DNA from: a virus | Direction: 5' to 3' (one strand) | DNA: 54,607 bases | IMG/VR virus record: IMGVR_UViG_3300001450_000001 | Span: 1 to 54,607 of that record | The notes under the pieces: model-generated | Databases searched by the model: none | What the model was told of the DNA's origin: nothing | What the model saw: only the letters and a program-made list of their open reading frames with translations | Shown: positions 1-43,060 of the stretch, in pieces | How the letters are laid out: each line of letters starts with the position of its first letter | Position numbering within the stretch: position 1 is the first letter of the stretch | Program-made: the position numbers and the translations under genes

Positions 1-183
1 AGAGACTTTACAAACGAACATCTATTAGAATTTTGGAAGAAAAACAAGTCTGCAATCAAGAAGAACGAAGCAGGTGCCAAAGCAGCATTAGATAAAGAAG
101 CTAAAGCACAATCAGACTATTACGGAAGTAAAGCTGATACAGGTAGAATAGGATACGGACTATCATCTCAACCTAGAAGATAA
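1..183 (+). CDS. 3' end of an unidentified protein (partial)
   Basis: An open frame enters from the left edge and stops at a TAA at 181-183, giving the last 60 residues of a longer protein. The visible tail is lysine/alanine-rich and hydrophilic, ending in G-L-S-S-Q-P-R-R. There is no recognisable domain. It sits 7 bases upstream of the packaged-effector cluster and is probably part of the same head-gene transcript. Function cannot be assigned from this fragment. Confidence 0.7.
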   Translation, partial: RDFTNEHLLEFWKKNKSAIKKNEAGAKAALDKEAKAQSDYYGSKADTGRIGYGLSSQPRR

Positions 184-190
184 CAATAAG

Positions 191-721
191 ATGATTAGAC
201 TAACAGACATATTAAATGAAGATATTTCAAAAGAAATTGAAATGTTAAAGAAGTACATGAAAGCTGGTGGTGAAAGGTCAACCAATATAGATAGTACAAT
301 CATGTCTCTATATAAAAAAAAGTCAGATTATCCTAAAGAATTAAAACCAAAGAGTGGTGAAGTATACAGAGGTACAGTTGTTGATACAAAAATGTTGAAG
401 AAAATGAAACCTTCAAAGGTGGAAGAAAGATATTTGTATTATAAAATACCATATAAATCTAGAAGAGGAGTTCAATCATTCACTTATGATGAGTTTATAG
501 CTAGGAAGTTTTCACAATTTAATGCATCATCACAGAATAAGACACCTGCAATTATCGTAGCTAAAGTTGATAATAGTTTCGTTGGAAATCCCAACTGGTT
601 GTATAAGGTTGGTAAGGAAGTTGGTTTAAGTAAGAATGAAAAAGAAACATTTCACGTTGGTAATAAAATAAATGCTATATTAAGAGTAGATGATTTGATG
701 GGAGTAATATATCCAAGATGA
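191..721 (+). CDS. Alt-like ADP-ribosyltransferase with capsid-targeting leader
   Basis: 176 residues. Residues 1-10 (MIRLTDILNE) match the leader shared by several neighbours and end in I-L-N-E, fitting the (I/L)-x-E cleavage rule of T4 gp21 protease. The body carries R-S-ExE mono-ADP-ribosyltransferase hallmarks: E-V-Y-R60-G on a first strand, Q-S96-F-T followed by a helix (the STS-type motif), and E150-K-E152-T-F-H-V-G (ExE plus the usual glycine turn). T4 Alt is also an internal head protein with a cleaved leader that modifies host RNA polymerase on entry. The inference is an injected ART that modifies a host target. Its stop overlaps the next start (ATGA at 718). The family assignment is by motif only, and the protein is far shorter than T4 Alt. 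Confidence 0.7.
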   Translation: MIRLTDILNEDISKEIEMLKKYMKAGGERSTNIDSTIMSLYKKKSDYPKELKPKSGEVYRGTVVDTKMLKKMKPSKVEERYLYYKIPYKSRRGVQSFTYDEFIARKFSQFNASSQNKTPAIIVAKVDNSFVGNPNWLYKVGKEVGLSKNEKETFHVGNKINAILRVDDLMGVIYPR

Positions 722-1140
722 TTAAGCTAAAAAGCATATTATCAGAAAGAATGACAACAAAAGATATTATTGGTGTTGTTAATAGTGTGTATCCTTATAT
801 AGTAAGATCTTTAGGCGGCAGGGAGTTAAAAGTTGAAGTACATAATAATATCTATAAAAGACTAGGTGCAGTTGCAATTGATGACTTAATGAAAGATAAT
901 AATCCTTATGCACAATATGACTGGGACTTAAAGAAGATATATTTATATGGTTCGGCTATAAAAAATATTGAGGAGGTAATAAGGTCTCTTTTACATGAGC
1001 ATACGCATTCATTACAAAATAAAAAAAAGTTTGAGGATGGATATGATTCAGGTAAATATACATACGCAACACATCCTTACGAAAAAGCAGCAACAAGTGC
1101 AGAAAAGAATTGGAAAAAGTACATGAGGTATATAAAATGA
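718..1140 (+). CDS. HExxH zinc metallopeptidase-like protein with capsid-targeting leader
   Basis: 140 residues beginning MIKLKSILSE, the shared leader ending in I-L-S-E. The body has H93-E-H-T-H97 within L-L-H-E-H-T-H-S-L-Q, a HExxH zinc-binding and catalytic motif, and a downstream H-P-Y-E-K-A-A segment whose glutamate could be the third ligand (gluzincin-like spacing). The start is fixed by ATGA overlap with the upstream stop and by the leader. By analogy with T4 internal proteins it would be packaged and injected. Whether it cleaves host proteins or acts in the head is unknown. The proteolytic assignment rests on this motif alone. Confidence 0.6.
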   Translation: MIKLKSILSERMTTKDIIGVVNSVYPYIVRSLGGRELKVEVHNNIYKRLGAVAIDDLMKDNNPYAQYDWDLKKIYLYGSAIKNIEEVIRSLLHEHTHSLQNKKKFEDGYDSGKYTYATHPYEKAATSAEKNWKKYMRYIK

Positions 1141-1328
1141 AGATATTAGAACACTCAAAGCAATTGCATAGAATTAGTGAAGGTGTCAAGGATAATATGC
1201 TTAAAGCAATCCCTGATAACTATTCATACAAGAATCTTGCAGCAGATGTTGCAACAATAATAAAAGATGAGTATGGCTCTCATAATATAAAACCGTTTAT
1301 CAAAGAGCTCATTAATAAGTTAAAATGA
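1137..1328 (+). CDS. Small internal-protein candidate with leader-like N terminus
   Basis: 63 residues starting at the ATG that overlaps the upstream TGA (ATGA at 1137). An in-frame ATG at 1110 would lie inside the previous gene and is less likely. The N terminus MKILEHSKQLHRISEG differs from the neighbours' leader but still ends in an (I/L)-x-E|G-like site, I-S-E|G. The remainder is a small, charged, helical protein with no known domain. It is followed by another ATGA overlap at 1325. The size and context fit the small basic internal proteins of T4-like heads, but that is inference. Confidence 0.6.
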   Translation: MKILEHSKQLHRISEGVKDNMLKAIPDNYSYKNLAADVATIIKDEYGSHNIKPFIKELINKLK

Positions 1329-2026
1329 TTAAGTTAACTGACATATTAAGCGAAGGTGTATACGATCCAGGTATATTTAAGGCAGTATTTACTGCTGGAG
1401 GCCCTGGTAGTGGAAAGTCATATGCAGCATCTACACTTTTTGGTATGCCAGAAAAGATGCCCTATGTTTCATCACAAGGATTAAAAGGTGTAAACTCTGA
1501 TCAGGCATTTGAGGCATATATGAAAAAAGCAAAAATGCCACTGGATCTTGAAAAGCTTACAAAAGATCAGCATGCAGATGCAATGAACTTAAGAGGCAAG
1601 GCAAAATCAGTCACAGCTAAGAGAATGCAGGGCTTTATCAATAGTAGGCTAGGAATGTTAATTGATGGTACAGGTAAGAATTATAATAAGATACAAAAAA
1701 TGAAAGGCATGCTACAATCTCAAGGCTATGACTGCTATATGGTATATGTAAATACAGATCTTAAGGTTGCATTAAAAAGAAATGCAGAAAGAGAAAGAAC
1801 TGTACCAGAAGATTTAGTTAAAAAGTCCTGGCAAGAAGTTAACCAGAACTTAGGTAAATTCCAGTCTCTATTTGGTGCAAGTAATATACTTGTTGTTGAC
1901 AATAGTGAATATAAAGAATTTGCAAACATAGTAAAAGCAAAAGCAAGGGAATTTGTTAAAAGGCCAATTCAAAACTATATTGCCAAAAAATGGATTAAAA
2001 AAGAATTAGAGATAAGGAGAAAATAG
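1325..2026 (+). CDS. P-loop kinase (zeta-toxin/PNK-like) with capsid-targeting leader
   Basis: 233 residues. MIKLTDILSE (1-10) is the shared leader, followed directly by G-V-Y-D-P-G-I-F-K-A-V-F and a Walker A G25-G-P-G-S-G-K31-S. Later features fit a small-molecule or nucleic-acid kinase of the zeta-toxin/polynucleotide-kinase type: a V-N-S-D-Q-A-F-E segment, an arginine-rich lid (K-R-N-A-E-R-E-R), and a C-terminal I-L-V-V-D-N strand. From memory, similar P-loop proteins with leader-like N termini occur in marine T4-like phages. The start overlaps the upstream TGA (ATGA). If packaged, it would act immediately after injection. The substrate is unknown. Confidence 0.7.
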   Translation: MIKLTDILSEGVYDPGIFKAVFTAGGPGSGKSYAASTLFGMPEKMPYVSSQGLKGVNSDQAFEAYMKKAKMPLDLEKLTKDQHADAMNLRGKAKSVTAKRMQGFINSRLGMLIDGTGKNYNKIQKMKGMLQSQGYDCYMVYVNTDLKVALKRNAERERTVPEDLVKKSWQEVNQNLGKFQSLFGASNILVVDNSEYKEFANIVKAKAREFVKRPIQNYIAKKWIKKELEIRRK

Positions 2027-3339
2027 TGAAACTACCAGGAAATATAAAACAAGGCCAAGTATTTACAGGATACGGCAAGGCATTTAAGATGACCGAGGTT
2101 AAACTTAAAAAGGGTGACCACATAGAATCAATGGGTGAGATTGGTGTGGTAAATAAAGTAAAAGGCCAGGTTGCATATGTTAAGTTTGGCTCAAACCCTA
2201 AGAGTTTTCATCCTATATTAGTATCTACAGTTAAGTATAAAGGCAAACATAAAGGTAAAGATTTATACACAGAAAGTATTAATGAGGCAAAAGCAAAAAA
2301 AGTCACAAAGAATATGTGGAAGAAGATGAGCGATGATGAAAAATATGATGCTCTACTTACTGTTGTTAAAGACCCAGATGATGCAGAAGAATACATTGAA
2401 TCTAAGTGGAATAACTTACCTAGTGGATTTGAAAGAGACATGTATACTGAAGCTGAACTACCTGATGAAGGGTTTTCTGATCCAGATCAAATGAGAGAAG
2501 CTAAATTCTATGTAACGTATAATAAGGGTAGAGGTCAAGGTAAAGGTATACTTAAGTCATCTGGGTCAAATTGGAAAAAGCCTCAAGTATTCAAAAGCTA
2601 TAAAGATGCTGAAAAATATATAGGGCCAAAATCATCTCACGGAATGACTGCTTACTGGGTATCAGATATCAATATGAATAGAGTTAATAAATACGGCGAG
2701 GTTGAAGAATCAGTAAACGAAGGCCAACCAATGTTTCAAGATACACCCAATGAGTTTGCATATTTAGACTTTAAGAAATGGGTATATAAAAATAGAAAGG
2801 CTGTAAAGAATATAATATTAAAGTCTGTAGGGAATGGTAGAGATCCTGGTACTGATACATTCCTTGCACTAAGGCAGATATGGTTAGCATGGGCTAATAA
2901 AAGTGCAAAAGAATATAGCAGAATTCCTAATAAAGGACCTCAAGGAAAAGACTTTGGTAGGGCTTTGGCAATAATGATGAAAAAGGATAACTTAATTATC
3001 AAAAAGTCAGGCAATAAGCTAATTGATCTTAATGAAGCTAAATTAGAAGAAGGCAAAAGTTTTATAGGAAAGCTTAAGGAAGCTACATCTCTATGGAAGC
3101 ACTTTGATAAGCTACAGAATCTGAGAATGGATAGTATGGACCTTGAAGATGATATGAGAAGTATTGCTAAAGATTTATCACAAACTCATAAGGATATGGA
3201 GCAGGAAGCTGAACCAGAAGGTGGTAAGGTTGCTGATAAATATGGTAAGGAAATAGCTAAATTAGAAAAAGAATATAAAAAGAAAAAAGCCGAGTTTAAG
3301 AAGTTAATGGCTAAAATAGATAAATTGGATAGATTCTAG
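2026..3339 (+). CDS. Multi-module prohead/internal protein with repeated protease-like sites
   Basis: 437 residues, with a GTG start overlapping the upstream TAG (TAGTG at 2024-2028). It lacks the MIKL leader but contains several candidate prohead-protease sites: E-S-I-N-E|A near residue 85, E-S-V-N-E|G near 232, and D-L-N-E|A near 340. These separate a basic N-terminal module, a K-K-M-S-D-D-E-K-Y-D-A-L-L domain rich in acidic residues, a basic aromatic module, and a C-terminal coiled coil (about residues 355-437, heavily K/E). It looks like a core or scaffold-type polyprotein trimmed during head maturation. That reading is inference; no enzymatic motif is visible. Confidence 0.55.
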   Translation: MKLPGNIKQGQVFTGYGKAFKMTEVKLKKGDHIESMGEIGVVNKVKGQVAYVKFGSNPKSFHPILVSTVKYKGKHKGKDLYTESINEAKAKKVTKNMWKKMSDDEKYDALLTVVKDPDDAEEYIESKWNNLPSGFERDMYTEAELPDEGFSDPDQMREAKFYVTYNKGRGQGKGILKSSGSNWKKPQVFKSYKDAEKYIGPKSSHGMTAYWVSDINMNRVNKYGEVEESVNEGQPMFQDTPNEFAYLDFKKWVYKNRKAVKNIILKSVGNGRDPGTDTFLALRQIWLAWANKSAKEYSRIPNKGPQGKDFGRALAIMMKKDNLIIKKSGNKLIDLNEAKLEEGKSFIGKLKEATSLWKHFDKLQNLRMDSMDLEDDMRSIAKDLSQTHKDMEQEAEPEGGKVADKYGKEIAKLEKEYKKKKAEFKKLMAKIDKLDRF

Positions 3340-3348
3340 GAGGCAACA

Positions 3349-3924
3349 ATGAAGTTAAAAAAGATATTAAAAGAAAAAAAGAACAAAGGCTTATGGGCAA
3401 ACATACATGCTAAGAGAAAGCGTGGTGAAAAACCTGCAAAACCTGGAGACAAGGACTACCCAAAGACTCTAGATATTGAAGGTAAAATAAAAGGCGCTGA
3501 TGGAAAAGCATGTTGGGATGGATATAGATACGCTGGTACAAAAAATGGTAAAGATAAGTGTGTTAAGATAAAGGAAAATGAGGAACTAGTAAGGGAATCT
3601 GAAATGGAGTGCTTCATGGAATATCTTACAGCAATGCACAAAGCAACAAATGAAGGTCCCATTCTTGAGGCTGAGTATGAAGGTCGTAAGGTTAAGTTAA
3701 ACAAACCTATGGCTGGTGATGTTGGAAAGTTTAAGGTTTATGTTGCATCAGGCAAAAAGAATGCTGATGGCTCTATGGGTGTTAAGAAGGTGAACTTTGG
3801 ACAGAAGGGTGCAAGAATAAAAAAGGACAATCCTGAAGCTAGAAGATCATTTAGGGCTAGACATAAGTGTGATCAAAAGAAAGATAAAACATCAGCAGGC
3901 TATTGGTCTTGTAAAAAGTGGTAA
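3349..3924 (+). CDS. Internal/head-associated protein with leader and basic Cys C terminus
   Basis: 191 residues with a strong AGGAGG ribosome site at 3339-3344. The N terminus MKLKKILKE is a lysine-rich version of the shared leader, and a second possible cleavage site (P-I-L-E|A) lies near residue 107. The C-terminal part is very basic (K-V-N-F-G-Q-K-G-A-R-I-K-K-D-N-P-E-A-R-R-S-F-R-A-R) and ends with cysteines in H-K-C-D and Y-W-S-C-K-K-W. From memory, this C-terminal block recurs in T4-like marine phages, so nucleic-acid binding inside the head is plausible. No catalytic residues are recognised. Confidence 0.6.
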   Translation: MKLKKILKEKKNKGLWANIHAKRKRGEKPAKPGDKDYPKTLDIEGKIKGADGKACWDGYRYAGTKNGKDKCVKIKENEELVRESEMECFMEYLTAMHKATNEGPILEAEYEGRKVKLNKPMAGDVGKFKVYVASGKKNADGSMGVKKVNFGQKGARIKKDNPEARRSFRARHKCDQKKDKTSAGYWSCKKW

Positions 3925-4457
3925 TGATTAAGCTTGTCAACATATTAGGTGAAGATTATGATCTAAATAATCATCCAAAAAAGAAGTGGATAACACAGAA
4001 GCTTTCTACTATAGATAGCAAGATATTGGATAATATATTTAAGGATTATAAAGCAGTATATCAAGCACAAGGCATGCAACTATCAGCATTTTCAGCTGCA
4101 GAATTAAAGTCTGGGTATGAATTGGTAATGTTAATAGATGTAGATAAAGACCCAATGCCAGATGCATTTATATTTACAAGAGGTAGAAGGGTTAAGCTAT
4201 TAGCAACAGATGGAGGCTCACTAAGTAAGTCTCTTGTTGTAAAGAAGGTTGTTAAAATGGTAAAGACTGGATACTCTCTTGAAGGCAGTAAGAAGATGGA
4301 TCAGATTATGTCATCTAAGGGTGCACCAGTTGTCTTGGATAAAAAGAAGATTGAAAAGATGGTGGGCCCTAAATTTATTAAGCACTTAGAAGATGGATAT
4401 TATGAAAGAAAGCTAAAGAAAGGCGGTAATGTCGTAAAGCGCATGTATGGGTCATAA
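3924..4457 (+). CDS. Acetyltransferase-sized unknown with capsid-targeting leader
   Basis: 177 residues. The start chosen is the ATG that overlaps the upstream TAA (TAATG at 3922-3926), because it restores the leader MIKLVNILGE. A GTG six bases upstream would add two residues and break the pattern. The body has alternating strands and helices (E-L-V-M-L-I-D-V-D, D-A-F-I-F-T-R-G) and a basic C terminus. I do not recognise a family with confidence. It is the last gene of the leader-bearing series, so packaging into the head is inferred. Confidence 0.6.
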   Translation: MIKLVNILGEDYDLNNHPKKKWITQKLSTIDSKILDNIFKDYKAVYQAQGMQLSAFSAAELKSGYELVMLIDVDKDPMPDAFIFTRGRRVKLLATDGGSLSKSLVVKKVVKMVKTGYSLEGSKKMDQIMSSKGAPVVLDKKKIEKMVGPKFIKHLEDGYYERKLKKGGNVVKRMYGS

Positions 4458-4653: not shown

Positions 4654-5088
4654 ATGAAGGAATGGAGTTATATACAGTCACCAATTGATGGTAGGCTAAT
4701 ATGTAAGTATGATAAAACATTTTATCTAGAATACTTACCAGATTCACACATATTTGTTAAAAATAAATTTGGTTGCACACACTATGCAGGCTTTTGCAGG
4801 CAGATATGGCTTAATATAGATCTCATTAAAAAGTTTGGTTCTTGGATTGAACCATATATTATTGGACATGAAAGGGCTCACATAATACACTATAATGGAA
4901 TGCACCAAGCAGTACAGGCTAGGAGGGATGAAGCCTATTACGATCATGAAATATTTATGGAAAATAAAGCCATAGAATACGTTAAGTATTATTATGAGGA
5001 TGATATTTATAACAAATGCCTAAACTTCTACATCGATAGATTAGAGGAATTAAAACAAAAAAGGGAAGAATATGTTAATAGAAATTAA
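4654..5088 (+). CDS. HExxH-containing protein, probable metallopeptidase
   Basis: 144 residues. The central segment I-I-G-H72-E-R-A-H76-I-I-H is a HExxH zinc motif with an extra histidine three residues on; tyrosines and acidic residues downstream (Y-Y-D-H-E-I-F-M-E-N-K-A) could supply a third ligand. The rest is rich in aromatic and lysine residues, and the C terminus is a charged helix. Unlike the protein at 718-1140 it has no capsid-targeting leader, so it should act in the infected cell. The substrate is unknown, and a structural metal site is possible instead. Confidence 0.5.
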   Translation: MKEWSYIQSPIDGRLICKYDKTFYLEYLPDSHIFVKNKFGCTHYAGFCRQIWLNIDLIKKFGSWIEPYIIGHERAHIIHYNGMHQAVQARRDEAYYDHEIFMENKAIEYVKYYYEDDIYNKCLNFYIDRLEELKQKREEYVNRN

Positions 5089-6830: not shown

Positions 6831-8939
6831 ATGAAAAACACAAACAACAACTCATCATTCTGGCTCAACACTGAGGACGATTATGATGTTCTAACAGGTG
6901 AAAAACTAACAATTGGTAAGGACCTACACAAACTATCAGGTATCCGTAGGGCTATATCAAACTTTGTTAATATCACAACTGGTGACTCAATCCCAGTTAA
7001 ATTCTCTTCTGGAAATGACTCTTACACTGATGGCAAATCAGTAGTCATATCAAGTAATATCAAGGACAAGGACTTTGATTCAACTGTTGGTCTTGCACTA
7101 CATGAAGGTAGTCACATTAAGCTAACAGACTTCAGTGTTCTTCCAAGAATAACTGAAATTATACAGGATAAAGAAAACAAAAGAATTGATCTACAATCCA
7201 TAATGGATAAATATGACATGGATGAATGGTCAGCAACTCATAAAGTTCAAGGTATTGTTTCACAGCTCCTTAACATTGTGGAAGACAGAAGAATTGACTA
7301 TCACATATTTACAAATGCACCAGGCTATAAAGGCTACTATCACTCTATGTATGACAAATACTTTAATGCTTCTATTATTGATAAGGCATTAAAACAAGGT
7401 GCCAAAAACGATCCAACAAAATGGGATGACTACTTATTCCATATTTGTAATTTTGCAAATCCAAACAGAAATCTAAATACTCTTCCAGCTCTTAGGGATG
7501 CATGGAATATCATTAACCTATCAGATATCAAAAGGTTAAGACATACTACAGATGCTCTTAATGTTGCAATTACAATGTTTAACACTATCGAGGCTACAAT
7601 ACCAAAACCAGGAAATTGTTCTGGAAAAGGTAAGGAAGGTAAAAAACAAGGCAAACAAGGTACTTGTAATGGAAATGGTCAACAAGGTACTTGTAATGGA
7701 AATGGTCAACAAGGCCAACAACCTAAACAAGGCCCTTCTGGTGGTGCTACGGATGATGGTTCAAAAGCAAAAGGTACAGATGTTAAGGACAACACACCAA
7801 ACCTTGATAATACACCAAAAGGTGGCCAACAAACAGGTGGAAATAATTCATCTTCAACACCAGTTAAACCACTTACACCTCAACAGGAAAGGTCTTTGGA
7901 TAAGCAAATTCAAAAGCAAAAAGACTTCAATAATGCAGATGTTAAAAAGTCAAAGCTTTCTAAAAAGGATGCAAAAAAAGTTGATGCAATGGATGCATCT
8001 GGATCTGAAATGGTTAATGCAGGTGCAGGTAACTATGACCACCCATGGGGAGGTACAAAAAACTATAAAGGTTTTAATACATTAGTTATTAAAAATCTAA
8101 CTAAAGGTTTAATTGATTCAGATATTTATTCAGATCTATTTACTGAATGGAGGCAGGAAAGGTACCAAGATAGTGTTAACAGAGGTATCAAGCTTGGTAT
8201 TATGCTTGGAAAAAAGCTACAAGTTAGAAATGAATCAACATCACTTAAAAATTCTAGGCTTAATAAAGGTAGAATTGACAAAAGGTTGTTGGCTTCACTA
8301 GGATTTGGAAATGAAAATGTATTTGAACAAACATTTGTAACCAATTTTAATGATGCTCATGTTCATCTATCAATAGATGCTTCTGGTTCTATGTCTGGTA
8401 ATAGGTTTGATAAGGCTACAATTTCTTGTGTTGCAATCGCTAAGGCGGCCTCAATGATTCAAGGATTAGATGTGGTAATATCATACAGAACAACAACAAA
8501 TGTTGGAAATGAACACACACCATGTGTCTTAATTGCTTATGATTCTAGAAAAGATAAGTTTACAAAAATTAAAAATTTATTCAAATATATTGATTGTAAT
8601 GGTACAACACCGGAAGGCTTATGCTTCGAGGCTATCCAAAAGGAAATGGTTGAAGGAAATAGCAAAATGGATAGCTACTTTATTAACTTCTCTGATGGTG
8701 AACCTTGGTTTAATGGACAGGGGATGGAATACTATGGTAACTATGCAATTGATCACACCAGGGGAATGGTTAACAAAATGAGAGATAGAGGTATCAAAAT
8801 ACTTAGCTACATGATTGATGCATCCAAAAATGGTACTGAAACATTCAAAAAAATGTACGGAAAGGATGCTGAAGGAATCAATGTATCTCAATTACTTCCA
8901 TTAGCTAAAACACTTAATTTAATGTTCTTAAAAAAATAA
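6831..8939 (+). CDS. VWA-domain protein with N-terminal HExxH (CobT/MoxR-partner type)
   Basis: 702 residues in three parts. The N-terminal region has H91-E-G-S-H95, a metallopeptidase-like motif. The middle (about 260-400) is low-complexity, rich in Q, G, N and K, with a duplicated 27-bp unit (7656-7682, 7683-7709). The C-terminal VWA domain has the MIDAS signature D516-A-S518-G-S520-M-S-G, T592/T593 and S621-D622-G-E. Proteins with this metallopeptidase-plus-VWA layout pair with MoxR-type AAA+ ATPases, as CobT does with CobS. A CobS/MoxR-like gene lies at 15209 behind the same repeated upstream motifs. A chelatase-like or protein-remodelling role is inferred; a true cobalamin role is unlikely without the other subunit or pathway genes. 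Confidence 0.75.
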   Translation: MKNTNNNSSFWLNTEDDYDVLTGEKLTIGKDLHKLSGIRRAISNFVNITTGDSIPVKFSSGNDSYTDGKSVVISSNIKDKDFDSTVGLALHEGSHIKLTDFSVLPRITEIIQDKENKRIDLQSIMDKYDMDEWSATHKVQGIVSQLLNIVEDRRIDYHIFTNAPGYKGYYHSMYDKYFNASIIDKALKQGAKNDPTKWDDYLFHICNFANPNRNLNTLPALRDAWNIINLSDIKRLRHTTDALNVAITMFNTIEATIPKPGNCSGKGKEGKKQGKQGTCNGNGQQGTCNGNGQQGQQPKQGPSGGATDDGSKAKGTDVKDNTPNLDNTPKGGQQTGGNNSSSTPVKPLTPQQERSLDKQIQKQKDFNNADVKKSKLSKKDAKKVDAMDASGSEMVNAGAGNYDHPWGGTKNYKGFNTLVIKNLTKGLIDSDIYSDLFTEWRQERYQDSVNRGIKLGIMLGKKLQVRNESTSLKNSRLNKGRIDKRLLASLGFGNENVFEQTFVTNFNDAHVHLSIDASGSMSGNRFDKATISCVAIAKAASMIQGLDVVISYRTTTNVGNEHTPCVLIAYDSRKDKFTKIKNLFKYIDCNGTTPEGLCFEAIQKEMVEGNSKMDSYFINFSDGEPWFNGQGMEYYGNYAIDHTRGMVNKMRDRGIKILSYMIDASKNGTETFKKMYGKDAEGINVSQLLPLAKTLNLMFLKK

Positions 8940-36938: not shown

Positions 36939-38375
36939 ATGAGAAGAATAGAGAAACCAGAAGACAAACCAAAAGCAACTGGAAGGTGGGTACTCACATC
37001 AACAGATGAGAATAAGTTAGCTTCTGCAATTGCAGACATTGAGAAAAATGAGAAGCTAGTAAAAAGTCTTAATGTTAAAGGTAAAAGTGTAAGAGATGCA
37101 GCACAAGAGGCAATTGAAACTGAAATCTCAGATATGCCACAATTTACTAACCAGGCTGGATTTGGAAATATACCTTCAATATTTGAAGATGAATCTGATG
37201 CATTATATAAATTTGACAATCAAGGAAGATTCTTAATTGACAAAGAGGCTGATGGATATCCAATTATAGAAATACCACCTAATAATATTCAGTTTGAATC
37301 GCAAACATTTAGAGATAAAATAGACTGCGAGATAACAGATGAGTTACTAGCAGCTAATCCTTTACCAAATGCTGCACCAATACAAATAAAATTAGGTGCA
37401 AGAAACTTTAGAGATGTCACAGATCAATCTGGCCAGAAGGTGCCTGACTCCAATTGGTGGGTATTTCCAGACTCTCCATCTCCAGAATCAGAAAATTTAA
37501 CAGACTATGTATATCAATTCTCAGAAGACAGCCATGCACTATTCTTCATCTTTGATGCAGTAAACTATATTGACTTAGACACAAAGAAGGGAATAGATAA
37601 AGGTTTAAAGTATAAGTTCTATCATGATGGTGAAGTTATAAAGGAAGGGCTCTATGGTGGCAATGAATATATTCAATTATTTAATGTAGGTGAAAAAGAC
37701 AATACAATACAAACTATAACTGCAGAAGTATATAATGACTTTGGAAGTGCTACAATAAGTAGAAAGTTTCAAGTAAGTAATAAATATGGTTCATATAGGC
37801 AGCAAAACCAGACATATTGGGCTTGGGATGACTTAATGACTAGGCCAAAATCAAGGCATGGAGGTTTATTTGCAGTAGATAAATCAAAGACAAATAGTAC
37901 TGGTTTGAATTCTGGATATTGGGCACACCACAGATTTATGTTGCACTTTACATGTGAAGATTATGAAACAATACCAGAATACTATAAGGATAATTGGAAG
38001 ATTGAGGTAGATCTTTTTGCTTCCAAATTTGGGCAAACAACAAAGAACAAAAATGCAAAATTTGGATTTAAGAGAGACTCGGAAGGGCAAACCTATAGGC
38101 CTAGAAAAACAGTATATACAATAAGAGAGCTACACGAAAGAGATTTTTTTAGTTGGGCAAAAGTTGACTTTCAACCAACACTTGAGCTATCAAAGTTAGG
38201 AAGACTTTCTGCAGGAATACAAACTCCAAATTACACAACTGGCCCAAAAGCTTTTAGGATAGAAAATAAAAAAACAATACGAAAGGTTCACATTAGATTT
38301 AAGGTCTATGAAAATGAAATTGAGTATATATATGATGGAAATAATTTTGATGACTACAAGGAGATAAGTTTATGA
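36939..38375 (+). CDS. Baseplate or fibre-associated structural protein
   Basis: 478 residues. The N terminus is charged and helical; the rest is strand-rich with repeated aromatic segments (Y-Q-F-S-E-D-S-H-A-L-F-F-I-F-D-A-V, G-S-Y-R-Q-Q-N-Q-T-Y-W-A-W). It overlaps the next gene by 4 bases. By position it could correspond to a gp7/gp8-type wedge component, but the sequence does not show this clearly. Confidence 0.55.
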   Translation: MRRIEKPEDKPKATGRWVLTSTDENKLASAIADIEKNEKLVKSLNVKGKSVRDAAQEAIETEISDMPQFTNQAGFGNIPSIFEDESDALYKFDNQGRFLIDKEADGYPIIEIPPNNIQFESQTFRDKIDCEITDELLAANPLPNAAPIQIKLGARNFRDVTDQSGQKVPDSNWWVFPDSPSPESENLTDYVYQFSEDSHALFFIFDAVNYIDLDTKKGIDKGLKYKFYHDGEVIKEGLYGGNEYIQLFNVGEKDNTIQTITAEVYNDFGSATISRKFQVSNKYGSYRQQNQTYWAWDDLMTRPKSRHGGLFAVDKSKTNSTGLNSGYWAHHRFMLHFTCEDYETIPEYYKDNWKIEVDLFASKFGQTTKNKNAKFGFKRDSEGQTYRPRKTVYTIRELHERDFFSWAKVDFQPTLELSKLGRLSAGIQTPNYTTGPKAFRIENKKTIRKVHIRFKVYENEIEYIYDGNNFDDYKEISL

Positions 38376-41300
38376 AGCTATTCTTAGATAACGGTCAGAA
38401 AGACCCAAAGTATACAATAGGTGAGAGAATAATATCTTTGCCACATCAGGTATGGCATCGAACGTTGTCTAGATTCACAGATGAGTCACTTATACTAGGC
38501 CCAAATACAGAAGACTTCTTTATATTAAAGTTCTATCAAGATAATGAAATACAATTTATATATACAGGAGACTCAGAAGAGCAATACACTTCGTTCTCAG
38601 AAAACAAATTTAAGATTGACCTTTATGGCTTAGTTGCAGATGAATTTCAGATAACTCATGGTGAGTTTATGTTAATAGGTAATTTCTATCAAAGAATATT
38701 TAACACTGATGCAACATTTATAGTACCAGAAATTTCTGCAGACAGAAGAGAGATAAGGGTTGAGCTAGCATATACTGATGATGAAGCCTCTGTTGGTAAA
38801 TTTAGACAGTGGTCTGATGCAGGTGAAGCTTCTCAAGGAGATATAATACAACAAACTGCAGTTGCATGGTTTAATGCAACATATGAATGTATGGTTGTTT
38901 CTTGGGCAAGAGATAAATACGGAAAGTCAAACTCTACAATATTAAGATTAGCACAACCATTACCAGATGAAATTAATGAAGGTGATATACTAAATCTATA
39001 CCACCAAAAGCTACTACCTTTTACAACAACAATAAATGTACAGCTACAAGATGAACAAGAAGAGGAACACAATAGGCTTAGACAACCTGCATTTAGATAT
39101 AGCTATAATGAGCTACCTCAAGCAGGAACAGTAGAATATAGAAGTCAAGATCAGCTGCTTAATGCAACCGGTAGTGTTACTCAAAGTATAAAAAATCTTG
39201 TATTAAGTTCTAGTAATATTAATTCAACGCTTAATGTAGACTATAGAGATTATAATAACTTTGTATGCTTTAGTTCTGCAACTGAGAGATTAAATAACTT
39301 TAAGTTAAAAGTTAAGCAAATAGAATATTATAATAGCCAAGTAGATTTTGTAACTTCACAGCTTGATGGCTTATTACATGGAGGTGCAACAGGTTCTGTA
39401 GAGTTCTTAGAGAATAAAGCAATATATGAGTCAAAGCTAAATGATATAAAGGTAAGTTTTGATGGCTATGAAAAGTATCTATATTACTCATCACACTCTG
39501 CAGGTGAGGACAGAAACAGACTAGATATAGAAGACTTTAAGACAGATATAAACTATGTATCATATTATAACTCAACTTGGCCTAAAACAAATTCATCTAA
39601 ACCCTACACATTGGCTTCTGCAGAAAGCGTAGAAGCAACAGACTGGTTTACAAGACAGTTGGCAACTGCAAGCTATCATGATACAAATAATCCTCACACA
39701 CTTAAGGAGCAAGTGCCAGACCATATTAAGCTTGATAGTAGTAATTCTGACTATCTATTATTTGTAGATATGATAGGACACCACTTTGATTCAATATATA
39801 CATATATAAAGCATATTGCAAAAATAAATAATAGAGACGAAAGCCTTTATGAAGGTATATCTAAAGACCTAATCTATGAAGCAGCTAAGAGTATGGGCTG
39901 GACATTACAACCTGGTTTTGATCTTGCCGAACTTTGGGATTATGTAAATGGAACAGATGCAAGTGGTAGCTATGTACCTGGAAATGAAGTTGAATCATAT
40001 TATGATGACTTATTATTAAGGGTAGGATATGAAAATAAAGACGGAAACTTCACACTTGCAGATACAAGTAAGTATAATAGAACATATGTTGCAAGAACAA
40101 TTGATGGCTCAGGTGATACAGTATATAACCAAGAAGCAATTGAAAACTTTAGCACAGAAGTTGGTGCATTTGGGAATGCAGGTGTCTATTCAACACCAAG
40201 TGGGTCTATGTCAACATATGCTGCAGGAGAAAGTGACTGGATAAATTCAGGTAGCTTTTCAGTATCGTTTTGGGCAAAATTTGACTCAACAGCATGGACT
40301 TTTGAGAGTAGTAGACTGTATACAATATTGGATGCAAGATCATATGGTGATAATGATGAGGACGGTGTTGTAGAACAAGGCCCTGGATTCGGCATCTTTA
40401 ATAGTCTGAGTTCAGGAATAGGGGTATTATTTGCTGACAAGAACGGAGGTCTATCTGCCACCAATGTAACTATAACAAATAGCGAGGCAACAGGTTCACT
40501 TACCCACTACGTAATGAATGTTGATAGAAATGAAGTTGTTGACTTCTTTGTTAATGGGCAGCATAGGTTAAAAGACACAAGTGCTCAAACTGGACTAGAT
40601 GCAAGTTATAATTTCCCATCCTCATCAGTTTCATATGGAACACAACATGGCCAAACATTTGAAAGACAAGGTATATCTATAGGTGGTAAATCAGAGACTA
40701 CCCCATTCTCAGATGACAACATGTTCACAGGAAGTTTGGATGATGTAAGAGTATATGGTAGGTTAATGACAACACAGTCAGTTCAAGACTTATATACACA
40801 ACCAGAAAGATATAGAGGCTCAGTCTCATATATACCAGGAAAAGAAACTCCAAGCTTTGAAGATGTCGATAAGCAGATCTGGAAAAGAATTCTAAATAAT
40901 CTACCTCAACTGCTAAAAAGTAAAGGTACAAAAAGAAGTATAAATACATTCTTATCTTGCTATGGCATACCTAAAACTCTTATGAATGTTCAGGAGTTTG
41001 GAGGAAGTGCACCAATTGATGGAGCTGACTTTCAAGAAATAACTAAGCATAATTATGGTATACATATAAGTGAAAGTGCATGTATAGGCTTAGGTAGATC
41101 ATCACACAATTCATCAAATATTAATGGTCTTGATGTCAACGCTTTTCCTCAAACTATCCAACTAAGATTTAAGTCATATAGTCAGTCTTCACAACTAACT
41201 CCACAATCACTAATACTAGGCTCAAATAGATGGGGAATACTTCTACAACCTATAGGCGGTGGGACTGGAAGTGTTGGTGCGGTTAAGTTTTATATAGGAG

Positions 41301-43060
41301 AAACAGATTCAGACCCTATTGTTTCTGCTTCAATAGAACTACCTATATTTGATGGCGACTGGTGGAATTTACAGCTATCAACAGATGTACCATTAGTATC
41401 AAGTGGTGTAAATGTAGTTTATACACTAAGGTGTGCTAAGTCTGGCGATCATGAGGACAACCAGATAACACATAGTGGAACTGCACAATTAACAGTAAAT
41501 GGTTCTGGTGGAGGACTTGCTGCAGATTATAATGACCAGTTTAAGACTGTACTAAGTAATACCCAATATAAGCTAGGATATTCCTCGCTATTCCTTCCAT
41601 CATACACCAGTAATTGGGCCCAACACTTTACAACTGGTAGCGGTTGGAGCTATAGTACAGATGCTCCGGATATGAACTTTTCAGGTTCATTACAAGAATA
41701 TAGAGAATATGCAGAAGAAATAAGCGAAGAAACATTCCATAAGCATACTATGGCACCAACAGCATACTTTGGTAATCATTATACAAGTTCATATGATACA
41801 CTAGTAAGAAGGTTTACGCTAGGATCTGATGGTGTTGTATATAATCATAATGAAATAGAAGGCGAGATACATGTTAGCTCAAGTCATCCAAATCAAAGTC
41901 AACCTTCAAGTTATTTTTATAATGGCACCACAGTAAAAGATTGGGCACTATTTCAGAATTTTAGAAATGAAACAGATACAGATGGAAATTATAAAGAGCA
42001 AATAGAAGAACACTATATATCTGTACCTAACTCTATAGGTAATAAAAGAAGTGATAGAAAGATAAGAAACTTAGAAACATATAGTGATGGATTCTTATCT
42101 CCAAATAAGACTCATGATAGTAGCTCACTAGACTTTATAGGAAAAGACTCAAATATAGTTCAGGTTGCACTATCACCAACAGATAATACAGACTTAGATA
42201 TAGCATATCAATTTGGTGAAAATAGAGTTGATGACTTTGTAGGTGACCCAAGGGATAGATATAAAACTCACTATCCACAGCTTAAAGAGTTAAGAGATGA
42301 ATACTTTAAGAAATATTCTAAAGCAGGCAATCCGTTTGAATTTGCAAAAATTCTAAACTATTTTAATAAAGGGTTCTTTAGACAGCTTGAAAACTTATTA
42401 CCTGCAAGAGCAGTAAAGAGGGTAGGTCTAATTATAAAGCCTCACTCTCTAGAAAGGTCAAAGGTTCAAGGTCAACCAAGTGTATTATATGATGCTACAA
42501 GTCCTTCATTACAAAGTTTTGACTCATCAGGAGTAAGGCAAAGAGATGAATACAGAGAAAACTTTACATTTGAAGGTGTAGTAACTGATATGACTGCTAG
42601 CTTTATAAATGCAATAGGCACAGATAAGTTGTTTGACCCTGCTCTTTCAAGAGATGGAGACTACTCTAATGCAGATACATATGTTGCATTAGTAGATATG
42701 TCGGGTGAAGGTATGTATTCAAATGGGTTGTGGGTATCACAATCATCATGGCAGCTAGGTACAACATCAAGTCTGGAAAACTTTACTTGGATGGATTCAA
42801 GGGCAATTACTGCTGGTCATGGAGTTAGAGACTTCGCACCAACAGAAAGCAGTCTAAGGCATAGGCTGCCAAGATTTGAAAAACTAAATCAAGGTTTACA
42901 AAACTTATACTATCTAGGTAGTAAACAAAGAGCTGACGGATTCAACACAAATACAGATGATACTGTTGATGGTGGACCTTTGGTGTCATTTATATTAATT
43001 AAAACAAACCAGCTTATTGTTAGGGAAAATACAAGAGGTGGAAAATTAAACGTAACATAG
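38372..43060 (+). CDS. Large tail/fibre protein with LamG-like domain
   Basis: 1562 residues. A laminin-G/concanavalin-like domain is visible near residues 620-810: S-F-S-V-S-F-W-A-K-F-D, H-Y-V-M-N-V-D-R-N-E, F-T-G-S-L-D-D-V-R-V-Y-G-R. It is followed by L-L-K-S-K-G-T-K-R-S-I-N-T-F and C-Y-G-I-P, a block seen (from memory) in large T4-like marine baseplate/fibre proteins. A second lectin-like stretch and a helical segment lie in the C-terminal half. The domains suggest glycan binding at the host surface. It probably attaches to the baseplate. Confidence 0.7.
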   Translation: MKLFLDNGQKDPKYTIGERIISLPHQVWHRTLSRFTDESLILGPNTEDFFILKFYQDNEIQFIYTGDSEEQYTSFSENKFKIDLYGLVADEFQITHGEFMLIGNFYQRIFNTDATFIVPEISADRREIRVELAYTDDEASVGKFRQWSDAGEASQGDIIQQTAVAWFNATYECMVVSWARDKYGKSNSTILRLAQPLPDEINEGDILNLYHQKLLPFTTTINVQLQDEQEEEHNRLRQPAFRYSYNELPQAGTVEYRSQDQLLNATGSVTQSIKNLVLSSSNINSTLNVDYRDYNNFVCFSSATERLNNFKLKVKQIEYYNSQVDFVTSQLDGLLHGGATGSVEFLENKAIYESKLNDIKVSFDGYEKYLYYSSHSAGEDRNRLDIEDFKTDINYVSYYNSTWPKTNSSKPYTLASAESVEATDWFTRQLATASYHDTNNPHTLKEQVPDHIKLDSSNSDYLLFVDMIGHHFDSIYTYIKHIAKINNRDESLYEGISKDLIYEAAKSMGWTLQPGFDLAELWDYVNGTDASGSYVPGNEVESYYDDLLLRVGYENKDGNFTLADTSKYNRTYVARTIDGSGDTVYNQEAIENFSTEVGAFGNAGVYSTPSGSMSTYAAGESDWINSGSFSVSFWAKFDSTAWTFESSRLYTILDARSYGDNDEDGVVEQGPGFGIFNSLSSGIGVLFADKNGGLSATNVTITNSEATGSLTHYVMNVDRNEVVDFFVNGQHRLKDTSAQTGLDASYNFPSSSVSYGTQHGQTFERQGISIGGKSETTPFSDDNMFTGSLDDVRVYGRLMTTQSVQDLYTQPERYRGSVSYIPGKETPSFEDVDKQIWKRILNNLPQLLKSKGTKRSINTFLSCYGIPKTLMNVQEFGGSAPIDGADFQEITKHNYGIHISESACIGLGRSSHNSSNINGLDVNAFPQTIQLRFKSYSQSSQLTPQSLILGSNRWGILLQPIGGGTGSVGAVKFYIGETDSDPIVSASIELPIFDGDWWNLQLSTDVPLVSSGVNVVYTLRCAKSGDHEDNQITHSGTAQLTVNGSGGGLAADYNDQFKTVLSNTQYKLGYSSLFLPSYTSNWAQHFTTGSGWSYSTDAPDMNFSGSLQEYREYAEEISEETFHKHTMAPTAYFGNHYTSSYDTLVRRFTLGSDGVVYNHNEIEGEIHVSSSHPNQSQPSSYFYNGTTVKDWALFQNFRNETDTDGNYKEQIEEHYISVPNSIGNKRSDRKIRNLETYSDGFLSPNKTHDSSSLDFIGKDSNIVQVALSPTDNTDLDIAYQFGENRVDDFVGDPRDRYKTHYPQLKELRDEYFKKYSKAGNPFEFAKILNYFNKGFFRQLENLLPARAVKRVGLIIKPHSLERSKVQGQPSVLYDATSPSLQSFDSSGVRQRDEYRENFTFEGVVTDMTASFINAIGTDKLFDPALSRDGDYSNADTYVALVDMSGEGMYSNGLWVSQSSWQLGTTSSLENFTWMDSRAITAGHGVRDFAPTESSLRHRLPRFEKLNQGLQNLYYLGSKQRADGFNTNTDDTVDGGPLVSFILIKTNQLIVRENTRGGKLNVT

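What the first reader, a model, noticed from the sequence alone, without database searches (positions are those of the whole stretch)
191..4457. Cluster of probable packaged effectors sharing a prohead-protease leader
Four genes start with a near-identical decapeptide (MIRLTDILNE, MIKLKSILSE, MIKLTDILSE, MIKLVNILGE) and one with MKLKKILKE; a sixth has MKILEHSKQLHRISEG. Each ends in (I/L)-x-E, the cleavage rule of T4 gp21 protease, and T4 internal proteins and Alt carry similar cleaved capsid-targeting leaders. The bodies behind the leader are unrelated: ART-like, HExxH, P-loop kinase, basic proteins. That is the pattern of a cargo system in which one leader sends different enzymes into the head for injection. 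The leader is seen in the sequence; packaging is inferred.
Basis: partly seen in the sequence, partly recalled or inferred. Interest (0 to 1): 0.88.

Follow-up and report, generated by a model that had tools for sequence, protein, structure and literature searches.

The report
Address tag for phage-head cargo proteins
A ten-residue tag at the start of a run of otherwise unrelated phage proteins looks like the shipping label that phage T4 uses to load proteins into its head for injection; the same label recurs on at least 60 unrelated protein families in related viruses, so it may let us read from sequence which proteins a phage injects.

Summary
Five genes at 191-4457 begin MI(K/R)LxxILxE or MKLKKILKE, and a sixth carries a diverged version. 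A further leader gene (MIKLKDILNE) runs across the ends of the circular 145,344-bp genome into window position 183; another lies in the head module at 75,661. One gene in the range (2026-3339) has no leader.

The phage is T4-like, encodes a gp21-type head protease, and its capsid protein carries a matching LIQE|A site.

In other viruses the leader MIKLxDILxE opens real genes in 149 of 150 matches, in front of 63 non-homologous bodies. A permuted control pattern gave 8 hits.

Leader positions 4, 7, 8 and 10 are the constrained ones; T4 mutagenesis assigned targeting to 4 and 7 and processing to 8 and 10.

The same bodies occur behind an N-terminal leader or behind an internal (I/L)xE site in longer proteins, which places the boundary at the predicted cut. 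The operon shares a promoter-like box with virion genes, and its bodies are all basic.

Best reading: a dialect of the T4 capsid-targeting sequence with a greatly expanded, partly enzymatic cargo. Packaging, cleavage and injection are inferred; no virion data were available.

The parts
1..183 (+). C-terminal part of the first leader gene (176 aa); its start and leader MIKLKDILNE lie at 144,997 of the circular record, outside the window
   Evidence: 97-bp terminal repeat and wrapped ORF
191..721 (+). Leader gene, 176 aa, leader MIRLTDILNE (191-220); tentative ADP-ribosyltransferase
   Evidence: four relatives L213-L217 keep a leader ending (I/L)xE and invariant R60, S96-F-T, E150-x-E152; AF2 pLDDT 57.5 and no significant PDB match
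718..1140 (+). Leader gene, 140 aa, leader MIKLKSILSE (718-747); HExxH (LLHEHTH) metalloprotease-like
   Evidence: Pfam DUF3920 E=0.001, below the curated cut-off
1137..1328 (+). Small basic protein, 63 aa, diverged leader MKILEHSKQLHRISE (1137-1181)
   Evidence: homologue in L173 carries canonical MIKLKDILNE
1325..2026 (+). Leader gene, 233 aa, leader MIKLTDILSE (1325-1354); P-loop kinase of AAA_33/Zeta type
   Evidence: about 80 IMG/VR relatives and named phages keep (I/L)xE or similar before the G-V/L/N-D body start
2026..3339 (+). Leaderless protein, 437 aa (416 aa from ATG 2089), with internal leader-type sites: E codons at 2284, 2497, 2719, 3034, 3049, 3079; modules match free-standing leader genes elsewhere
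   Evidence: Site counts; module matches in L057, L112, L060, L064
3349..3924 (+). Leader gene, 191 aa, leader MKLKKILKE (3349-3375); basic protein of two modules joined at an ILE|AEY site
   Evidence: the modules are separate genes in HTVC008M and the first begins MKLADIISE|KNKGLW in L057
3924..4457 (+). Leader gene, 177 aa, leader MIKLVNILGE (3924-3953); probable GNAT-fold protein
   Evidence: AF2 pLDDT 84.8, pTM 0.80; all 50 listed PDB matches are acyltransferases of GNAT type, best E 2.7e-3; internal-leader homologues in L056 and L060

Best explanation
The decapeptide is a capsid-targeting sequence (CTS) of the T4 kind in a different dialect. During head assembly the leader (hydrophobic residues 4 and 7) docks each new protein onto the prohead core. 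The gp21-type protease then cuts after the glutamate of (I/L)-x-E, removes the leader and frees the basic body among the packaged DNA. On infection the bodies enter the host with the DNA and act at once, as T4 Ip1-3 and Alt do. Because the signal is only ten residues, unrelated bodies (kinase, GNAT-like, probable ART, HExxH, small basic proteins) can be swapped behind it, and bodies can also be strung into longer proteins with the same kind of cut site between them. Shown here: the leader, its spread, its constraint pattern, the body boundaries, the protease gene, the basic bodies and the shared promoter-like box. Inferred: docking, cleavage, packaging, injection and the function of each body.
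For: gp21-type protease (phrog_207, 1e-53), T4-type capsid protein and portal in the same genome; capsid site LIQE|A. Leader in 150 matches, 149 opening frames of 40 codons or more, 63 body families; permuted control 8 hits; in cellular genomes 44 matches, 17 of them in short frames. Kinase relatives fetched by body: I7, E10 and G11 invariant, 4 L/F, 8 L/I, 5 and 9 free, synonymous codons vary; in T4, residues 4 and 7 target and 8 and 10 are processed (PMC9026906); T4 IPII/IPIII MKTYQEFIAE, gp24 MAKINELLRE. Same bodies behind N-terminal leaders or internal (I/L)xE sites. Basic bodies, pI 9.0-9.8, P=9e-5. GATATTTAT box shared with virion genes.
Against: No virion or cleavage data. P1' residues in the own cluster (D, D, R, G, K, D) are not mainly A/G/S as in the T4 sites read here; virus-wide A/G/S is only moderately over-represented at P1' (22 of 63 against about 11.5 expected). 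The protease co-occurrence test does not discriminate: 7 of 7 large leader contigs but also 2 of 3 large controls have it. One gene of the run lacks a leader. The letters differ from T4's CTS.
Confidence: 0.8

Rival explanations
2. The leader is an uncut N-terminal docking helix for some other partner (host membrane, RNA polymerase or a phage protein complex), and the E at position 10 is part of the helix.
For: Only residues 4-8 are predicted helical in the model and no cleavage was shown.
Against: Body starts coincide with the (I/L)xE boundary whether the segment is N-terminal or internal; E10 is invariant while residue 9 is free, which fits a protease rule and the T4 data.
Confidence: 0.05
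3. The shared N-terminus reflects duplication of one gene or a shared translation-start sequence, not a peptide signal.
For: The genes are adjacent and overlapping.
Against: Bodies are unrelated; codons of the leader vary synonymously while residues are kept; lineages use different letters for the same positions.
Confidence: 0.02
4. Chance similarity of short N-termini.
For: Ten residues is short and the motif was defined after seeing the data.
Against: 8 strict matches against 0.04 expected; at least 119 contigs against 8 for a permuted pattern.
Confidence: 0.01

Closest known systems
T4 capsid-targeting sequence and internal proteins IPI/IPII/IPIII (PMC9026906, PMC3012670, PMC12373910)
   Same: Ten-residue N-terminal leader ending (I/L)-x-E, hydrophobic residues at 4 and 7-8, gp21-family protease, unrelated basic bodies sharing only the leader.
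   Different: Letters differ (MIKLxDILxE against MKTYQEFIAE); cargo here is far more varied and partly enzymatic, lies in one operon, and also occurs as modules in longer proteins.
T4 Alt (injected ADP-ribosyltransferase with a 7-residue propeptide, PMC9026906)
   Same: An ART-type enzyme as leader-bearing head cargo; the first body here is a tentative ART.
   Different: ART assignment of gene 191 is not secured and no homology to Alt was shown.
T4 gp24 vertex protein propeptide
   Same: MAKINELLRE is the T4 head propeptide most like MIKLxDILxE in pattern.
   Different: gp24 is a shell protein, not cargo.
P1 DarB signal (PMC9024508) and giant-phage SPN3US ejection-protein propeptides (PMC5694885)
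   Same: N-terminal signals that send injected proteins into phage heads.
   Different: P1: no consensus among Dar proteins, signal longer than 9 residues. SPN3US: several propeptides longer than 100 residues. Here: a uniform ten-residue leader.

Membership tests
T4-type capsid-targeting sequence / internal-protein system | N-terminal propeptide of 10-19 residues ending (I/L)-x-E | tested here: met
   9-15 residues in all seven leader genes of the run
T4-type capsid-targeting sequence / internal-protein system | Constraint at residues 4 and 7 (targeting) and 8 and 10 (processing) | tested here: met
   58 kinase relatives fetched by body against T4 mutagenesis (PMC9026906)
T4-type capsid-targeting sequence / internal-protein system | gp21-family head protease in the same genome | tested here: met
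   phrog_207 E=1e-53 at 73,830-74,495
T4-type capsid-targeting sequence / internal-protein system | Bodies unrelated to each other and basic | tested here: met
   pI 9.0-9.8
T4-type capsid-targeting sequence / internal-protein system | Leader letters like MKTYQEFIAE | tested here: not met
   Same positions, different letters; intermediate MKQFKSIIQE in relatives. Not a requirement for function, but it makes this a dialect.
T4-type capsid-targeting sequence / internal-protein system | Leader removed and body present in mature virions, then injected | not testable with these tools
   Needs virion proteomics and infection experiments
ADP-ribosyltransferase (gene 191-721) | R-S-E catalytic motifs | tested here: inconclusive
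   R60, S96-F-T and E150-x-E152 invariant in four sequences, but all four are 56-60% or more identical, so this is weak
ADP-ribosyltransferase (gene 191-721) | ART fold | tested here: inconclusive
   AF2 pLDDT 57.5; best PDB match a KptA chain at E=0.2, probability 0.41
GNAT acetyltransferase (gene 3924-4457) | GNAT fold | tested here: inconclusive
   All 50 listed matches are GNAT-type but none below E=1e-3, TM about 0.4-0.5; no sequence match in PDB
P-loop kinase, AAA_33/Zeta-toxin type (gene 1325-2026) | Walker A motif and Pfam score above the curated cut-off | tested here: met
   AAA_33 43.5 bits against 27; Zeta_toxin 40.4 against 22.3; GGPGSGKS present

The most novel reading that the evidence does not exclude
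The leader is a general, evolvable address code for head cargo across T4-like phages. Each lineage has its own dialect matched to its prohead core and protease, and bodies move between free-standing leader genes and head-to-tail polyproteins in which leader-type sites act as internal separators, so that the head protease releases several effectors from one polypeptide inside the head.
Probability: 0.45. Interest if true: 0.85.

Novelty: new variant of a known kind. Interest (0 to 1): 0.72.

Why it matters
T4 is known to inject a handful of leader-tagged proteins, and three of them inhibit restriction enzymes (PMC12373910). If this dialect works the same way, a ten-residue tag lets one list, from metagenomes alone, the proteins that uncultured T4-like phages deliver on entry. 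Even a capped scan gave 63 sequence families with one dialect and 51 with the T4-type one, most of unknown function and many enzymatic. That makes the open question of what phages inject directly testable.

Tried and rejected
A sigma-70 scan of the operon start found fewer sites than shuffles. The T4 late box TATAAATA is not enriched before leader genes; TATTTAT/ATATTTAT is, but with all genes of the same loci as control the strict leader genes are only marginally above background (9% against 7%), the looser leader class clearer (20%); the own-genome box is the stronger evidence. ART assignment by structure failed for want of a confident model. PDB sequence searches gave nothing for the kinase and nothing convincing for the other two. 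No paper held prints the leader strings searched, and none of the four papers found for immuto (titles and abstracts only) appeared to report its virion proteome. One malformed report was returned unsubmitted.
Full report
Setting. The window is the first 54,607 bases of a 145,441-base virus record with a 97-bp terminal repeat, so a circular genome of 145,344 bp. Nearly all genes lie on the plus strand. The head module lies outside the window: terminase 68,910, portal 70,503, gp21-type protease 73,830-74,495 (phrog_207, 1e-53), acidic scaffold-like protein 77,367, capsid protein 78,344 (phrog_138, 7e-67), tail sheath 83,062. The capsid protein is closest to Microcystis phage Mel-JY01 (54%), Flavobacterium phage immuto (52%) and Rhodothermus phage RM378 (37%). 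Several own proteins have signal-peptide-like N-termini ending in -AQ, which by general knowledge suggests a Bacteroidota host; this is inference.

The observation. All six N-termini are as reported. The run is longer than reported: the gene before it, MIKLKDILNE, starts at 144,997 and ends at window position 183. Counting it, seven of eight consecutive genes carry a leader, and gene 2026-3339 is the exception. A leader gene also sits in the head module (75,661, MKLKDILKE). The strict motif occurs at 8 of 183 starts against 0.04 expected, but it was defined after seeing the data; a looser rule gives 15 against 5.0, P=1.6e-4.

Is it a signal beyond this phage? Of these, 149 open a frame of at least 40 codons (median 145), and the bodies fall into 63 blastp families. 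A pattern of the same residues in another order found 8 stretches in the whole collection, half of them in frames under 40 codons. In the cellular-genome collection (257 Gb) the leader pattern gave 44 matches, 17 in frames under 40 codons, and several of the rest look like phage contigs. In an alignment of 62 family representatives only M1 I2 K3 L4 D6 I7 L8 E10 are invariant; most of these positions were imposed by the search, so the point is the lack of any other similarity. Pfam finds NUDIX, RNase_T, M23, lysozyme-like, ATP-grasp, P-loop kinase, 2'-5' RNA ligase and others among them. Families are counted by sequence, so some may share a fold; the count is both capped and approximate.

What the leader is constrained to do. 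Kinase relatives were fetched by body (one of six search peptides, VYDPGIFK, lies just after the leader, none inside it). In the 58 with a 12-residue N-terminal segment, residues 7 (I), 10 (E) and 11 (G) never change, 4 is L or F, 8 is L or I, and 5 and 9 vary; codons for Leu4 and Asp6 vary synonymously, so the peptide is selected. In T4 IPIII, amber-suppressor mutagenesis placed capsid targeting mainly at residues 4 and 7 and processing at residues 8 and 10 (PMC9026906). T4 IPII and IPIII begin MKTYQEFIAE|A and gp24 begins MAKINELLRE|S. The match in length, hydrophobic positions and final Glu is position by position, although the letters differ.

Where the bodies begin. The same body follows an E at the predicted cut in every architecture seen. 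Kinase: ILSE|GVYD here, ILKE|GLYD in HTVC008M, ELQE|GVYD in Melnitz, and inside a fused protein EVTE|GVND in Atu_ph07. GNAT-like body: MIKLVNILGE|DYDL here, internal KLTLKNLLSE|NYDL and KLSLKNLLPE|NYDL behind another domain in L056 and L060, MIRLTEILNE| in L112. The leaderless gene 2026-3339 reads as a string of such modules: ESVNE|GQPMFQ against the N-terminal leader MIHLKNILSE|GRPMFQ in L057, MRE|AKFYVTYN against MRLKDALNE|RKYYVTYN in L112, KLKE|ATSLW against KLTE|ATSLW in L060. The head-module gene at 67,884 has SINE|DVFKSF where relatives have KLNE|DVFKSF. The small gene at 1137, whose own leader is diverged, has a homologue in L173 with MIKLKDILNE. This interchange between free-standing and fused positions is hard to explain without cleavage at these sites.

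Dialects. In another marine clade the same kinase starts MKQFKSIIQE|GV or MKVNSFIQHLAE|GV, and neighbouring genes start MYSFKQYLNE, MKSFRDFIFE, MRFKDFLKE. Leaders thus tend to agree within a lineage and differ between lineages on the same body. A small protease tree separates the MIKL group from the HTVC008M-like group, but twelve sequences cannot tell co-evolution from shared descent.

Other lines. All eight proteins of the run have pI 9.0-9.8 against a genome median of 6.1 (P=9e-5), and the 63 representatives are more basic than neighbouring genes (8.0 against 6.2, P=1e-3). T4 internal proteins are basic, and Ip1-3 inhibit restriction enzymes (PMC9026906, PMC12373910). A box GATATTTAT occurs 27 times forward and once in reverse (2.4 to 2.7 expected), about 19 times within 75 nt upstream of a called gene start, mostly of virion-module genes, and once at 144,575 at the head of this operon. 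That suggests, without proving it, that the run is expressed with the virion genes. Leader contigs of at least 130 kb from the pattern scan (7 of 7), the four named relatives, and 6 of 7 kinase-leader contigs of 105 kb or more have the gp21-type protease; two of three controls of that size do too, so this is a necessary condition met, not proof.

Bodies. Kinase: firm. Gene 3924: GNAT-like fold, pLDDT 85, best PDB E 2.7e-3. Gene 191: ART suggested by invariant R60, S96-F-T and E150-x-E152, but the model is poor and the matches are not significant. Gene 718: HExxH, DUF3920 at 0.001. What each does in the host is unknown; counter-defence or host takeover is the default guess from T4.

Verdict. 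A capsid-targeting leader of T4 type in a new dialect, with an unusually large and partly enzymatic cargo set and module shuffling through internal sites. The kind is known; the dialect, its extent and the polyprotein arrangement were not found described in the papers searched. Packaging, cleavage and injection remain to be shown.

Noticed in passing
record 144,575 and 26 other places; in the window e.g. 31,537, 32,907, 43,088, 51,019: Strand-specific box GATATTTAT (27 forward, 1 reverse), often 12-75 nt upstream of gene starts in the virion module: a probable phage promoter element.
   Followed up: partly
L012:432-6611 (Agrobacterium phage Atu_ph07): Five tandem genes that look ART-like by eye (YRGM...), each starting M(K/R)W(E/N)(Q/D)L(T/N)E, the last fused to the leader-associated kinase: a parallel leader cluster in a jumbo phage with a gp21-type protease.
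   Followed up: partly
record 66,876-68,444; L034, L053, L058, L107, L119: A second N-terminal type, M(N/K)xxx(L/I)(I)(K/R)EE, on genes around the head module; it may be another targeting signal.
   Followed up: no
4654-5088: Second HExxH-like gene (HERAHIIH) right after the cluster, without a leader; no PHROG match and a weak YgjP-like Pfam match.
   Followed up: no
record 63,127-65,394 and relatives L014-L061: 755-aa protein with a nucleotidyltransferase-like N-terminal part (weak Pfam CTP_transf_like) kept directly after the kinase in many relatives; starts MKLDKWLVENILAED or MSLGKWLAEQII.E, also leader-like.
   Followed up: partly
6831-8939: 702-aa protein with a VWA-like DASGSMSG motif and a low-complexity Gly/Gln-rich middle, by eye; possible metal-dependent adhesion-type protein.
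   Followed up: no
38372-43060: 1562-aa protein in the virion module with no PHROG match.
   Followed up: no
L056:8042-9268 and L060:7286-8536: A domain resembling PAP2-type phosphatases by eye (PSGHATQ...KVHYPSD in L056) fused to the GNAT-like module through an internal leader; in L057 a similar N-terminal domain is a separate gene.
   Followed up: partly
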